Origin: Aeoliella mucimassa
GTDB lineage: Bacteria > Planctomycetota > Planctomycetia > Pirellulales > Lacipirellulaceae
Assembly: GCF_007748035.1 (NCBI RefSeq)
Contig: NZ_CP036278.1
Location: 4,712,001-4,776,000 of the forward strand
DNA length: 64,000 bases
Direction of reading: 5' to 3'
Shown: piece by piece, positions 4,792-12,714 of the stretch
How positions within the stretch are numbered: position 1 is the first letter of the stretch
How the letters are laid out: each line of letters begins with the position of its first letter
The notes under the pieces: generated by a model
Databases searched by the model: none
Told to the model about the DNA's origin: nothing
Seen by the model: the letters and a program-made list of their open reading frames with translations, nothing else
Translations under genes and position numbers: made by a program

Positions 4792-5341
4792 GAATAGATT
4801 CCCAATTTACCCACCGATGGGAAAATTGAATCCGCGCCCACTCTACAAAACCAGTGGTTTTCGCGTGCGAATAGATTCCCATTTCCCAAAACGCATCGAG
4901 TGGGAATCTATTTTTGCGGTGCGCACTTATCGCAAGTCGTTGGTAGCTATGAAGTTGCATCAACACCTCCACGGAAAGTGCCCAAAATAGATTCCCATGG
5001 GTGGGAAAGTATTTTGGTTGGGAGTTGAGGGATTTCGGATTGGGGATTTCGGAATGCGGAATGTCGTCTTGAAGGAGCTTCCAGCGACTGAAAAATCTAG
5101 CCTATCGCTTACAGCCTAAAGCCCACAGCTTTAACAACCGCGCAGCAGCGAACGCCTACGCAAGGGCCATCGCGGTCAGAGACCGCTCCTACAGTGCGCT
5201 TGTGTGGTAGATATTTCAGTGGATTTAATGTTCACTCGGTTACATCTCTCCATCCTCCAACAACGGACTACTGACCACAAACAACGGACAACACACCACC
5301 TGTCCATTAGAACACCACAGGTGGCCATTTCCCAGCGAAAA
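4792..5341 (+). repeat. Dispersed intergenic mosaic repeat, copy A
   Basis: About 550 bp without a credible gene. It begins GAATAGATTCCCA and ends near CTGTCCATTAGAACACC followed by a GGTGGCCA block. The first half forms several hairpins: AATAGATTCCCA pairs perfectly with TGGGAATCTATT across the segment around 4870-4917, and CCAAAATAGATTCCCA pairs imperfectly with the nearby TGGGAAAGTATTTTGG (about 4982-5016). A G-rich stretch follows, then a short conserved CGCGCAGCAGCGAACGC block. Copies at 7900-8456 and 49279-49712 share order and boundaries but differ in the internal module. In this copy the module contains a GCGGTC-AGA-GACCGC hairpin. Confidence 0.85.
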
Positions 5342-8456: not shown

Positions 8457-8546
8457 TGTGGCGATTTGAGAAATCGCTTGGGAGGTGGCAGAAGGGGTTG
8501 ATCTGGCAGGCGAGAAGCCCCGATGCATCTGACGGAGGGCGATTCC

Positions 8547-9155
8547 TTATACTCGTGGGCCCCGGAATAAGCAGCCCACTAAAGTTGGGGCGGAAAATAG
8601 TACTATGAGCACGGCTGACGATGGCTCGGGAACTACAAATGAAAACGCAAGATCACCACTTGGGCGGTACTCTTTTAGCTGATCACCGGGGTAGAGTGGG
8701 AACTGCAAACTCCCGCCTTGATATCCGGTCTCGCGACCATCGATGAAGGCTCCGTAGTCGTTGTAGCCTGTAGGCCCTGATCCAAATTGGTTGACTACCA
8801 ACCCATAGTCTTCGTTCAGGGTGAACTCAAACGGATCGTCAAACACTACCGTACGCCAATCAGGGGCATCTATCGGTACATCACTCGCTAGTAACATTCC
8901 ACTGGTAAGAATCTCTGAGTCCAACGTTCCGTCTGGTAGCAGATCGCGAATTTCGACCGTTGTATCCGCAGCGTTGCCATGGCCAAACACCACGAGGCGT
9001 ACCGCCAATATTGTGTCATTCGATTCAGAGACGAACGTCTGCGTTGTACCATCCCCAAAATCGCTCAGCAGATTGAACTGCAGTTGACTCTGTGCAGAAG
9101 CACTTTGAAGAATCGACTGTGATCCAAAAAGGAAGAGAATCAGTAGCCTGAACAT
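8547..9155 (-). CDS. PEP-CTERM-anchored secreted protein of unknown function
   Basis: From the ATG at 9155 the product is 202 residues: signal peptide (MFRLLILFLFGSQSILQSASA), a beta-rich domain of about 150 residues, and a C-terminal sorting signal, VPEPSS followed by a hydrophobic helix and basic end (GPRV). This tripartite tail is the PEP-CTERM signature, normally processed by an exosortase. The middle part (SQLQFNLLSDFGDGTTQTF, FGHGNAADTTVEIRDLLPDG) resembles the choice-of-anchor type domains of such proteins but I assign no function. Upstream in-frame ATGs exist at 9200 and 9227; 9155 is chosen because it places the signal peptide at the N-terminus. No convincing ribosome-binding site is seen for any of them. 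Confidence 0.8.
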   Translation of the reverse strand: MFRLLILFLFGSQSILQSASAQSQLQFNLLSDFGDGTTQTFVSESNDTILAVRLVVFGHGNAADTTVEIRDLLPDGTLDSEILTSGMLLASDVPIDAPDWRTVVFDDPFEFTLNEDYGLVVNQFGSGPTGYNDYGAFIDGRETGYQGGSLQFPLYPGDQLKEYRPSGDLAFSFVVPEPSSAVLIVLFSAPTLVGCLFRGPRV

Positions 9156-9587
9156 GGAGAGATTCCGTAGTCTATCAAGAGGGGTGCAATTACTTGACAT
9201 TCTACTATAGCTGTGACAAGCATGCAAAACATCTTTGCAGTGAACCTCCTATGTAGAAACCACCAAGGTCTGGATTCATGCAGGGTGGCGTGCAGGGGTT
9301 AGGTGCAACAGCTACCGCTTAGTTAAGAGGATGCCTAAGGGTTTCTCGGAGAAGGGGTTGCAGTCGAGACTAGCTGACTCCACTATGCCCCCCTCCTGGG
9401 CAACAGCCATGACAAACGAGGAGAACAAGCAGATGCAAACAGCAAAGCAATGTTTCATCGAGGGTTCCCATGCAACTGATACGTACGAAACACGGATGAT
9501 CCGTACCCATTCTTACCACGAAGCAGAGAACTCTGTCGAGTCATCACCCTCCTTGTATCTTGCAGAAAGGTTGGTATCAATAACCGA

Positions 9588-9775
9588 GCCGTCTTCTGCG
9601 GAGTGAGCGCAGCGAACGTAGCAGAAGACGGCGGCCGCCGGTAGATCGTGCCCTCCTGGGTCCTCACGAGACCGAAATTGTAGCTGGATCGCCGGTCGGC
9701 CGCCTGTCGAAGTAGCCCGAACAGTCGCCGGAGCTGTCTCATCAACAAGCTCGTATAAGCAAGGAAGGGTAACCG
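9588..9775 (+). ncRNA. Candidate IS110 bridge (guide) RNA
   Basis: Directly upstream of the transposase, the plus-strand RNA would fold into a 5' stem-loop (12 perfect pairs, 9588-9599 with 9621-9632). It is followed by a bulged stem of about 16 pairs (9630-9647 with 9687-9704) that closes a 39-nt loop. That loop has a small apical hairpin, GGTC/GACC (9659-9662, 9670-9673), leaving a 5' strand (9648-9658) and a 3' strand (9674-9686). This is the arrangement of the target-binding loop in IS621-type bridge RNAs. A third hairpin, GAGCT/AGCTC (9731-9735, 9748-9752), lies before the gene. A donor-binding loop could not be matched convincingly to the element ends. Confidence 0.6.
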
Positions 9776-10729
9776 ATGGAAAACAGTTTGCAAAGTACTT
9801 GGATTGGGGTTGATGTTGCCAAGCATCATTGGGACGTGGTCGTTGCCGGGCAAACCCAGGTGCATCACTTCCCTGCCGACCAAGAGGGATGCCAGCAACT
9901 TCAGCAGTTTCTCGCTCAGCATCAGGTAACCCATGCCTGCCTCGAAGCGACAGGAGGCTACGAACGAATGTTAGCCGACTTCCTTCGTGAGCAAGGGATC
10001 GTGGTGAGTATCGCCAACCCACGTCAGATTCGCGATTTCGCCCGTACTCAAGGCCAGCTTGCCAAGACCGATCGTCTCGACGCGCTAGTGATCGCTCGTT
10101 ATGCGGTACTGATGCAGCCCAAGAAGACCAAAAAACCCTCGGAAAACGAGCGGAAACTCGGTTCCCTCCGGACACGTCGGCAGCAAGTGAGCGATGCTCT
10201 GACGCGGGAGAAAAACCGGTTGGGTACACAGCACGATGACTTGGTGCGCCAGTCGATTGAAGAAGCCATTGACTTCTACCAACGACAGCTTGAACAGCTC
10301 GATCAACAGATCCAACAGCTATTACAAGCCGACGATCAGTTTCGAGAACGCTCGGCACTGCTGACCTCGGTGCCTGGCGTGGGGGCAACGACGGCCGCAG
10401 CCTTGATCGCTCACTTGCCAGAGCTGGGATCGCTTAATCGTGGCGAGGCGTCACGTCTTGCAGGCCTGGCACCGATTAACCGTGATAGCGGAACCTTGCG
10501 AGGCAAGCGGATGATTGGCGGCGGCCGAGCGGTCGTACGCAAGATGCTCTACATGCCCACTCTCGTCGCGACCAAGCATAACCGAGTCATTCGCGAGCAC
10601 TACCAGCAGCTGCTGCAACGAGGCAAAGCCAAAATGATCGCCCTTACCGCCTGCATGCGAAAACTACTACTGATACTCAATGCCATGATTAAAACAAATT
10701 CCACCTGGAATGACCCCCGGGAGACTTGA
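9776..10729 (+). CDS. IS110-family transposase (DEDD recombinase)
   Basis: The 317-residue product has the N-terminal RuvC-like DEDD domain with D13 (IGVDVAK), E57 (CLEATGGYE), D99 and D102 (KTDRLDA). A helical linker follows (residues about 140-185), then the C-terminal IS116/IS110/IS902 domain (SVPGVGATTAAALIAHLP, ASRLAGLAPINRDSG, RKMLYMPTLVAT) with the catalytic serine at position 238. All catalytic residues are present and length matches IS621-like enzymes, so the protein looks functional. It acts on circular element DNA guided by a structured RNA; a candidate for that RNA lies immediately upstream. An AAGGAAGGG stretch 5 bp before the ATG is a reasonable ribosome-binding site. Confidence 0.95.
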   Translation: MENSLQSTWIGVDVAKHHWDVVVAGQTQVHHFPADQEGCQQLQQFLAQHQVTHACLEATGGYERMLADFLREQGIVVSIANPRQIRDFARTQGQLAKTDRLDALVIARYAVLMQPKKTKKPSENERKLGSLRTRRQQVSDALTREKNRLGTQHDDLVRQSIEEAIDFYQRQLEQLDQQIQQLLQADDQFRERSALLTSVPGVGATTAAALIAHLPELGSLNRGEASRLAGLAPINRDSGTLRGKRMIGGGRAVVRKMLYMPTLVATKHNRVIREHYQQLLQRGKAKMIALTACMRKLLLILNAMIKTNSTWNDPRET

Positions 10730-11050
10730 TTTTCAAGACAGTCGCTACTCCGAACACAACACAGATTGCGGCAGCCGCTGGAGGCGATGGATCGGCTGCG
10801 CAAGTCTTTGCGAGCAGGGTTACCCACCATTCCCCCAAAAAACGGTTGAGCTGGAAGACTATTGTTGAATCGCGTGACCTCGCACGCGTTCGTTATTGCT
10901 CCACTGACTTCCGTTCGAGACTGTTTGTGCCCAGAAGCTTGAGAACTCCGGCGCCCCTCTACAATTGATCCACCGCAGCACCTGTCTTTTCGTGCAAAGC
11001 CACTGGCTGCTGGGCAGCACTGGATGCCTGCTGGTTCTAAGGTCTCAAAC

Positions 11051-11087
11051 AAAAAAACCCCAGGCGACGAAGTGCGCCGCCTGGGGG
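11051..11087 (-). terminator. Rho-independent terminator of the cheW-chemoreceptor unit
   Basis: On the minus strand CCCCAGGCG (11086-11078 arm) pairs perfectly over 9 bp with the arm at 11066-11058, followed by a T7 run (plus strand A7 at 11051-11057). It starts 17 bp after the chemoreceptor stop codon. Confidence 0.85.
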
Positions 11088-11103
11088 AATTGACTCGCAT
11101 CCA

Positions 11104-12714
11104 TTAAAACTCTTCGAACGCGCCGTAGTCGGCTCCCACGCCTACCAGTTCCATGTCGTCTACGTGATCGACCACTGGTGTGCGTTCGATCGGCCTGGTA
11201 ACGGCTGGGCGGGGCTTTCTGCGATGCTCGGAGATGGGGGCTCGCTTTGGCGACTTCGCCGAGACCGTCGCTATAGGCATCGCGGCATCCGTCGGTTCGT
11301 TCTTGCTAAGATTGAACTGCGAGACCACGGTCTGAAGAAGTTGCGATTGGTTCAACAGCGACGATGCCGTGCAACTCATCTCTTCCGTTTGAGAAGCGTT
11401 GTCTTGAGTCACGTGGTCGATCTGCGTGATCGCTTTGTTGATCTGCTCGATACCGGCGGTCTGTTCGCTGCTGGCTGCGGCGATTTCCGCAACGATATCG
11501 GTCACTCGCTTGACGCTCGTCACGATGTCGCTCAGAGTCTCGCCCGACTTGTTGACCAGTTCGGACCCCGCTTTCACTTTGTCGACAGAGTCTTCGATCA
11601 ACCTTTTGATCTCCCGAGCGGCTGTGCCGGAACGTTGGGCCAAGCTGCGAACCTCGTCAGCGACGACGGCAAACCCGCGTCCCTGCTCCCCAGCCCTGGC
11701 GGCTTCGACCGCGGCGTTCAAGGCAAGCAGGTTGGTTTGGAAGGCAATCTCGTCGATCGTGGTAATGATGTCTGCGATCTTGCGAGACGAATCGCTGATT
11801 TCCTGCATCGCTTGCACGGCGTGGGAGACGACTTCGCCCCCCTGCTCGGCCGTTTTTCGCGAGCTATTAGCCAGCTGATTCGCCTGCTCGGCATTGTCGG
11901 CATTCTGCCGCACGGTCGCGGTGATTTGCTCGAGGCTCGCGGCGGTTTCCTCCAAACTCGAAGCCGACTCTTGCGTGCCCGAACTGAGCGTATCCGAAGC
12001 TCCTGAGAGCTGCTGTGCTGCTGAAGCGACCGAAGTGGAGATCGTTTCGACCTTGCGAATGGCACCGCTAAACCAACGCGAAATCCATGCCGCCATCGCC
12101 AAACCAGCGATGCAGTTCACAACGAGCACGATACTGATCACGATCAATGCAGAAGTGTAAGCGGCAATACCCGCACTTGCTTCGGAGTTGCAACCATCGC
12201 GATTGAATGCGAGTACTTCGTTGATGGCGTCTTCTAGATCCATACGAGCTGCAAACAACCCTCCCAACAACAACTCTTTCGCTTGGCTCTTGCCCCCTTC
12301 ATCCAAGAAGGTGATCATCCGATCGCTTTCGCCAAGATACTTAGTTAAGCGACTCCCGATTGCATCAACATTCTTTTGCTCCTCGTCCGACGAGCACAGT
12401 TCGCTCAGTTCTTCATAACTGGCATTCAGTTTCTGGGCACACTCGTCCAGCGCTTTCTTGCACGTGGTGATTTCTTCATCGGTCTCCACCATGCACAGTT
12501 TGAACGTGTAGACCCGATGGTTCGAGGTGTTCGTGCTTAGCAGATTCGCCTGCGCACGAGAGGGAATCCATTTATAAGTCAGTGCTTCTACGTTGGCGTT
12601 GAGTGTCGATAGCTTGGAGATGGCTACCAACCCCATGACAATCATCAGTATCAGCAGCGAGGAGAATGCAGCAAATAGCTTTGCCCCCACGCTTAGTTGT
12701 TTGAACCAGGCCAT
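11104..12714 (-). CDS. Methyl-accepting chemotaxis protein
   Basis: The 536-residue product has a first membrane helix at about 10-32, a four-helix-bundle periplasmic sensor domain (about 35-185) and a second helix at about 188-212 ([20 protein letters not shown]). Adaptation and signalling helices run from about 215 to 480. The hairpin tip is fully conserved ([20 protein letters not shown], then [18 protein letters not shown]), where CheA and CheW bind. The C-terminal 50 residues are a basic, proline-containing tail of unknown role with no CheR pentapeptide. It follows the cheW gene with a 65-bp gap on the same strand and is ended by a strong terminator, so the two are probably co-transcribed. 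Ligand is unknown. Confidence 0.93.

What the first reader, a model, noticed from the sequence alone, without database searches (positions are those of the whole stretch)
9388..10966. IS110 element with a bridge-RNA-like fold whose internal loop matches both insertion flanks
Seen: upstream of the transposase, a bulged stem of about 16 pairs (9630-9647 with 9687-9704) closes a loop with an apical hairpin (9659-9673). The 5' loop strand contains CCCTCCT (9651-9657), identical to flank DNA ending at 9397. The 3' strand contains AATTGTAG (9676-9683), complementary to CTACAATT at 10959-10966. Known: in IS621-type bridge RNAs the target loop has a left guide on the 5' strand and a right guide on the 3' strand, meeting at a CT core. 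Inference: the uninterrupted target read CCCTC-CT-ACAATT. I could not match a donor-binding loop to the inferred ends, so the end positions remain open.
Basis: partly seen in the sequence, partly recalled or inferred. Interest (0 to 1): 0.75.

Follow-up and report, generated by a model that had tools for sequence, protein, structure and literature searches.

The report
IS110 jumping gene with RNA guide

Summary
Three near-identical copies elsewhere in the chromosome put the element at window 9554-10746 (1,193 bp), with CT cores at 9552-9553 and 10745-10746. The left guide CCCTCCT (9651-9657) matches the true left flank at 9547-9553; the CCCTCCT at 9391-9397 and the CTACAATT at 10959-10966 are coincidences. 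The true right flank pairs with only the last four guide bases (CTAC). A sister element (82% identical transposase, five copies in the same chromosome) keeps the RNA scaffold but has other guide bases, which match its own different target. Unoccupied copies of both targets exist. In 24 related elements left guides fit their own flanks better than in any of 20,000 shuffles; right guides do so in 18. Three of the four window-type copies sit in a REP-like hairpin, two copies of which flank a REP-associated transposase gene. Mechanism and natural retargeting are already published: a clean new member of a known kind.

The parts
9547..9553 (+). true left target flank CCCTC plus CT core (9552-9553)
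   Evidence: window copy differs from the other copies just upstream; L010-L012 read GAGCCCTCCT, the window ATCACCCTCCT
9554..10746 (+). IS110-family insertion sequence, 1,193 bp, counted from after the left CT to the end of the right CT
   Evidence: 3 further near-identical copies with other flanks; same join at unoccupied repeats
9588..9632 (+). bridge RNA 5' stem-loop
   Evidence: 12 pairs, 6 with changes on both sides in 6 elements, 100% of cells paired
9633..9701 (+). bridge RNA target-binding stem and internal loop
   Evidence: fold; closing helix 98.7% of cells paired in 6 elements; the 9 own-genome model hits are the 9 IS copies
9649..9657 (+). left target guide TGCCCTCCT (core guide 9656-9657)
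   Evidence: 7 of 9 match to the window flank, 8 of 9 to three other copies; shuffle test on 24 elements
9680..9683 (+). right target guide GTAG (core guide 9682-9683); longer 3' strand 9674-9683 GAAATTGTAG
   Evidence: pairs with CTAC at 9 of 9 own-genome right junctions; shuffle test on 18 elements
9721..9728 (+). left donor guide ACAGTCGC
   Evidence: identical to the right end 10738-10745
9759..9763 (+). right donor guide GCAAG, overlapping the Shine-Dalgarno-like AAGGAAGGG
   Evidence: pairs with CTTGT 9552-9556 (4 Watson-Crick, 1 G-U), read by eye; GCAAGG in 6 of 6 aligned elements
9776..10729 (+). IS110 recombinase, 317 aa
   Evidence: PF01548 1.6e-26, PF02371 1.2e-15; NF033542 1.2e-63; IS621 8wt6 2.6e-42
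10738..10746 (+). right end: left-donor sequence ACAGTCG plus CT core (10745-10746)
10747..10748 (+). right target AC next to the core; first flank bases after the element
   Evidence: CTAC in 9 of 9 own-genome copies
9391..9397 (+).
10959..10966 (+).

Best explanation
An IS110-family, IS110-group (IS621-like) insertion sequence in the chromosome of a probable planctomycete. Its left end encodes a bridge RNA: 5' stem-loop, target loop, donor loop. The target loop pairs with (G)CCCTC-CT on the bottom strand and CT-AC on the top strand of the insertion site. The donor loop pairs with ACAGTCG-CT and CT-TGT of the circularised element. The 317-aa DEDD recombinase then exchanges strands at the two CT cores and inserts the circle without loss of target bases. 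In three of its four copies the target is a REP-like hairpin, GGGCTC-GGA-GAGCCCTC-CT-ACA. Shown here: ends, scaffold conservation, guide-flank covariation, unoccupied sites. Inferred from published IS621 work: RNA expression from a promoter rebuilt across the circle junction (TTGATT-17-TATCTT), RNA binding, strand exchange.
For: Four copies with different flanks: left junction CCCTC-CT in 4 of 4, right CT-AC in 4 of 4. Sister element, 5 of 5 copies: guide CCCACCCT = flank CCCACCCT, scaffold kept. Guide strands differ more than the rest of stem-loop plus target loop: 7 of 20 versus 4 of 97, p 3.3e-4. Unoccupied targets: 5 sites within 2 mismatches for the window element (2 exact), control 0; 29 hits for the sister's target, 5 of them its occupied junctions, control 0; clean filled/empty comparison. 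Family genomes: G029 4 of 4 left flanks and 6 of 6 right ends fit; G014 right junction GATGTCCC in 7 of 7, left guide exact in 4 of 7, loop read by eye. Shuffle tests: left 158 versus mean 122.9, 0 of 20,000; right 104 versus 48.8, 0 of 20,000. Base-pair covariation: 0 of 500 shuffles for four of five measures, 1 of 500 for the fifth. IS621 as solved relative.
Against: The longer right guide AATT is not used at the nine own-genome copies: the window flank pairs with CTAC only, L010-L012 with CTACA. The window copy has only 7 of 9 left-guide matches and is not in a REP-like hairpin. In 7 of 24 elements the own left guide did no better than most others (L217, L125, L133, L192, L142, L178, L162). 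G020 matches 6 of 9. The RNA model finds nothing in G014, and 42 of 80 named loci gave no hit even at E 1. The donor stem folded differently, and the right donor guide fit is short. No empty site of this very locus was found in the 39 genomes, own included. Rfam gave no match. No RNA data.
Confidence: 0.95

Rival explanations
1. One reading: element ends at about 9396 and 10960, target CCCTC-CT-ACAATT at this locus.
For: Both strings are really present.
Against: The copies elsewhere match only 9547-10748 of the 9388-10966 query; both string matches are at about chance level.
Confidence: 0.01
2. Target choice is made by the protein; the loop resemblance to the flank is coincidence, and the hairpins only regulate the transposase mRNA.
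For: The right donor guide overlaps the presumed ribosome-binding site, and a regulatory 5' structure is described for ISPpu9 (PMC8450116; title and start of abstract in the listing only).
Against: Guides change together with the flank on a near-constant scaffold and across related elements. A regulatory side role is not excluded.
Confidence: 0.03
3. The copies arose by duplication of larger segments, so that shared flanks reflect common descent rather than site choice.
For: Among the sister's copies, L014 and L015 share nearly all of the flank shown, and L013 shares their right flank. How far the flanks are shared beyond the stretch printed was not measured.
Against: Flanks of the window copy, L010, L011 and L012 differ beyond the repeat; L016 and L017 have other right flanks; unoccupied repeats show the same join.
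Confidence: 0.04

Closest known systems
IS621 and its bridge RNA (E. coli, IS110 group)
   Same: Recombinase homologous over residues 8-310; RNA in the left end upstream of the gene; two guide loops; CT core; 9-nt left and 4-nt right target guides; REP targets (PMC11208160, passages seen)
   Different: Other host, other guide bases and other repeat sequence
ISCro4 (PDB 9t56)
   Same: Homologous IS110 recombinase, 4.3e-40
   Different: Not compared at RNA or target level here
seekRNA of ISEc21 (IS110 type) and IS1111-type elements
   Same: Non-coding RNA with matches to both target strands; natural redirection between relatives reported (PMC11187229, passages seen)
   Different: In the IS1111 type the RNA is usually downstream of the gene; here it is upstream
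REP / REP-associated tyrosine transposase (RAYT) modules
   Same: Two copies of the target hairpin flank a gene scoring over the cut-off of NF047646; IS insertion into REPs is known (PMC1525189, title and start of abstract)
   Different: The IS does not encode the RAYT; the repeat is only its landing site

Membership tests
IS110 family | DEDD RuvC-like N-terminal domain and Transposase_20 C-terminal domain | tested here: met
IS110 family | conserved acidic residues and C-terminal serine | tested here: met
   D13, E57, D99, D102, S238 invariant in 7 of 7 aligned proteins and aligned with IS621; that these are the catalytic ones is partly recalled
IS110 group (IS621 type) | long non-coding left end with RNA upstream of the gene, short right end | tested here: met
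   222 nt from the left core to the start codon; 17 nt from the stop codon to the end of the right core
IS110 group (IS621 type) | 5' stem-loop followed by a stem with a target-binding internal loop | tested here: met
IS110 group (IS621 type) | second stem with a donor-binding internal loop | tested here: inconclusive
   guide sequences present, but folds pair this part differently
IS110 group (IS621 type) | left and right target guides match the insertion site around a CT core | tested here: met
IS110 group (IS621 type) | donor guides match the element's own ends | tested here: met
   left donor guide 8 of 8; right donor guide 5 pairs incl. one G-U
IS110 group (IS621 type) | insertion without loss of target bases | tested here: met
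   filled versus unoccupied repeats; paralogous sites, not the same locus
IS110 group (IS621 type) | RNA is expressed and bound by the recombinase; element moves | not testable with these tools
   no RNA or activity data
IS1111 group | long non-coding region downstream of the gene | tested here: not met
   right non-coding end is 17 nt
IS1111 group | subterminal inverted repeats of 11-13 bp | not tested
   no inverted-repeat search was run on the ends

The most novel reading that the evidence does not exclude
Two sister IS110 lineages in one chromosome have retargeted their bridge RNAs to two different host repeat families, one of them a RAYT-borne REP. The window lineage's full guide (GCCCTC-CT-ACAATTT, 15 bases) is an exact match to the unoccupied REP beside that RAYT gene, so the bridge RNA may be tracking REP/RAYT evolution as a safe-landing strategy.
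Probability: 0.3. Interest if true: 0.45.

Novelty: new member of a known kind. Interest (0 to 1): 0.3.

Why it matters
It is an independent test of bridge-RNA targeting: one chromosome holds two sister elements with nearly the same RNA scaffold, different guides and different, partly unoccupied targets. That is a natural reprogramming experiment. It also ties an IS110 landing site to a REP/RAYT module. The principles are already in print (PMC11208160, PMC11187229, PMC1525189), so the gain is confirmation and a usable natural pair, not a new mechanism.

Tried and rejected
Empty site of this exact locus: a search of 39 genomes (own included) with 9228-9546 found the own copy and one 44-base hit in G008, so nothing to compare. 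Rfam: no match at E up to 1 for 8500-11800. First scan of genome contigs with the single protein: 52 stretches matched a pattern, none confirmed; the second, with alignment A2, kept the best 80 of 538. Solitary bridge RNAs or MITE-like forms: not seen. In the own genome the model hits the nine IS copies and nothing else, with 150 of 1,797 first-look candidates scored; the three extra partial hits in G029 lie at contig ends. The short transposase tails L061-L064 in G029 are contig ends too; L065 is a tail inside a contig and was read only for its right end. G014 empty sites for GCTGGNTGTCCC: 10 hits against 7 in the control, uninformative. The base-difference lists that one search printed for reverse-strand copies are meaningless because those copies were not turned; one search repeated the comparison with all copies in one direction. 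Structure prediction and fold search were not run, since sequence homology to a solved IS621 was enough.

Full report
What is there. The transposase at 9776-10729 (317 aa) is an IS110 recombinase (PF01548 1.6e-26, PF02371 1.2e-15; NF033542 1.2e-63), homologous over residues 8-310 to IS621 of PDB entry 8wt6 (2.6e-42) and to ISCro4 of 9t56 (4.3e-40). D13, E57, D99, D102 and S238 are invariant in 7 of 7 aligned relatives.

Ends. The window lies in a single-contig genome of 6,608,792 bases. That contig holds three more copies of window 9547-10748, two of them on the minus strand, with 0, 4 and 6 single-base differences over 1,202 bp. The window copy's flanks differ from those of the other three on both sides. 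Five copies of a sister element, identical to each other over 1,196 bp, are present too; it matches at 82% in DNA and its protein is 82% identical. Reading the junctions around a shared CT, the window element is 9554-10746, 1,193 bp, with cores at 9552-9553 and 10745-10746; the sister is 1,190 bp.

Guides. The 5' strand of the target loop reads TGCCCTCCT (9649-9657). The window flank is CACCCTCCT (7 of 9 match) and the three other copies have AGCCCTCCT (8 of 9). The sister's loop reads TCCCACCCT and its five flanks read ACCCACCCT (8 of 9). At the right, CT-AC follows in 9 of 9 copies and pairs with GTAG (9680-9683), the four-base right guide known from IS621 (PMC11208160, passages). The longer stretch AATT of the window's right strand is not matched by the window flank (CTACTCCG) and by only one more base in L010-L012 (CTACAGC). 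The sister's longer right strand likewise matches CTAC only.

Scaffold against guides. Between the window element and its sister, 7 of 20 guide-strand positions differ against 4 of 97 other positions of the stem-loop and target loop (Fisher p 3.3e-4); with the donor part included the figures are 7 of 20 against 14 of 158 (p 0.0034). In six elements from five genomes the structure that I drew has 97.9% of cells paired. The 5' stem has six pairs with changes on both sides; no shuffle of 500 reached four of the five measures, and one reached the fifth. The target-loop closing stem is kept in 98.7% of cells but has no pair with changes on both sides, so its support is conservation, not covariation. 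The apical hairpin is 84.2% paired; G027 and G020 carry gaps there in the alignment. The donor stem is not settled: pair it differently.

Wider test. A covariance model of stem-loop plus target loop finds the 9 IS copies and nothing else in the own genome (150 of 1,797 first-look candidates scored). Among 43 family genomes, own included, 7 have hits; G014 has none. In 80 named relatives (the best 80 of 538) there were 42 matches at E up to 1 in 38 loci, 41 of the 42 on the coding strand upstream of the transposase; 42 loci had none. One search covered 90 sources (79 of those 80, without L123, which is the G027 contig, plus 11 others) and kept 37 matches at E up to 0.01. Of these 24 entered the left-guide test; the 13 dropped were three contig-end copies of G029, four further copies of L125, three with too little upstream sequence and three whose match lacks the loop. 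The summed longest match of own guide to own upstream region was 158, against a mean of 122.9 and a maximum of 145 in 20,000 reassignments of guides. In 15 of 24 the match runs to the core and is followed by TGTA or a close variant. In 7 of 24 the own guide did no better than most others. For the right guide 27 elements were examined (the 24 and the three short ones) and 18 had the anchor ACAGYCR downstream, the other 9 were left out; the summed match was 104 against a mean of 48.8 and a maximum of 80 in 20,000. Nine of the 18 match seven right-guide bases; the window element, its sister, G029, L143 and L125 match four.

Family examples. G029: 4 of 4 left flanks CGCACC-CT and 6 of 6 right ends followed by CTAC, one of the six (L065) being a remnant inside a contig. 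G027, G022 and G020, one full copy each: left-guide matches 8, 9 and 6 of 9, right matches 6, 5 (the contig ends there) and 7. G014, with its loop read by eye because the model does not hit it: GATGTCCC at the right in 7 of 7 copies; left guide GCTGGGTA exact in 4 of 7, one mismatch in 1, two in 1, left end missing in 1.

Targets. Three of the four window-type copies sit in a hairpin repeat GGGCTC-GGA-GAGCCC followed by TC-CT-ACA; the window copy does not. Five unoccupied sites lie within two mismatches, control 0. A looser pattern gave 25 hits, control 0: the same 5 unoccupied, 3 occupied, 1 degenerate, and 16 of a second hairpin class ATCGCGGTC(A/G)GAGACCGCTCCTACA. That class has 6 of 9 left-guide matches, and none of the four window-type copies lies in it. 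One of those 16 is in the window at 5169-5193. Two of the first-class hairpins, in opposite orientation, flank a gene of 179 aa that scores 109 bits against the REP-associated tyrosine transposase model NF047646 (cut-off 80). One of the two holds IS copy L011; the other is unoccupied and reads GCCCTC-CT-ACAATTT, an exact 15-base match to both guide strands of the window RNA. By my own estimate a perfect 14-base match would be expected about 0.05 times in this genome by chance, so this is suggestive only. The sister's target gave 29 hits within two mismatches, 5 of them its own occupied junctions, control 0.

How it most likely works. By analogy with IS621 (PMC11208160, passages), the element excises as a circle. 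The joined right and left ends form a promoter-like TTGATT-17-TATCTT, which would drive the bridge RNA. The RNA-recombinase complex then pairs its target loop with (G)CCCTC-CT-AC and its donor loop with the circle junction, and exchanges strands at CT. The ends, the scaffold and the guide-flank correspondence are shown here; transcription, binding and recombination are inferred.

Known or new. The RNA, guide rules, CT core and REP targets are published (PMC11208160), as is natural redirection between close relatives (PMC11187229, passages) and IS insertion into REPs (PMC1525189, title and start of abstract). One search for papers with Planctomycetes, IS110 and REP together listed three, none on this by its title; I saw only that listing and claim no absence beyond it. 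This is a new member of a known kind.

Noticed in passing
L019 about 895-1530 (G000:C1 about 4939002-4939637): A REP-associated tyrosine transposase gene (L019 933-1472, minus strand; NF047646, 109 bits) is flanked by two inverted REP-like hairpins; one is occupied by IS110 copy L011, the other is an exact unoccupied match to the window RNA's full guide.
   Followed up: partly
window 5169-5193 and 15 further places in G000: A second hairpin repeat class ATCGCGGTC(A/G)GAGACCGCTCCTACA shares the right half of the target but not the left, and none of the four window-type copies lies in it.
   Followed up: partly
L053-L059 (G014): Seven copies of a more distant relative appear to use a non-CT core: by my reading GT (5) or AT (1) at the six readable left junctions and AT at all seven right junctions, with guide bases that allow G-U wobble for either.
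   Followed up: partly
elements: Right-guide match length differs by element: seven bases in L072, L216, L132, L133, L192, L141, L138, L137 and L181, only four in the window element, its sister, L060, L143 and L125.
   Followed up: no
window 9759-9769: The right donor guide GCAAG overlaps the presumed ribosome-binding site of the recombinase, so RNA use and translation might interfere.
   Followed up: no
G000: Five places with the same score (34.4 bits, 30% identity over residues 40-308) and one weaker place suggest a second, distant IS110-type element in the chromosome; their sequences were not compared.
   Followed up: no
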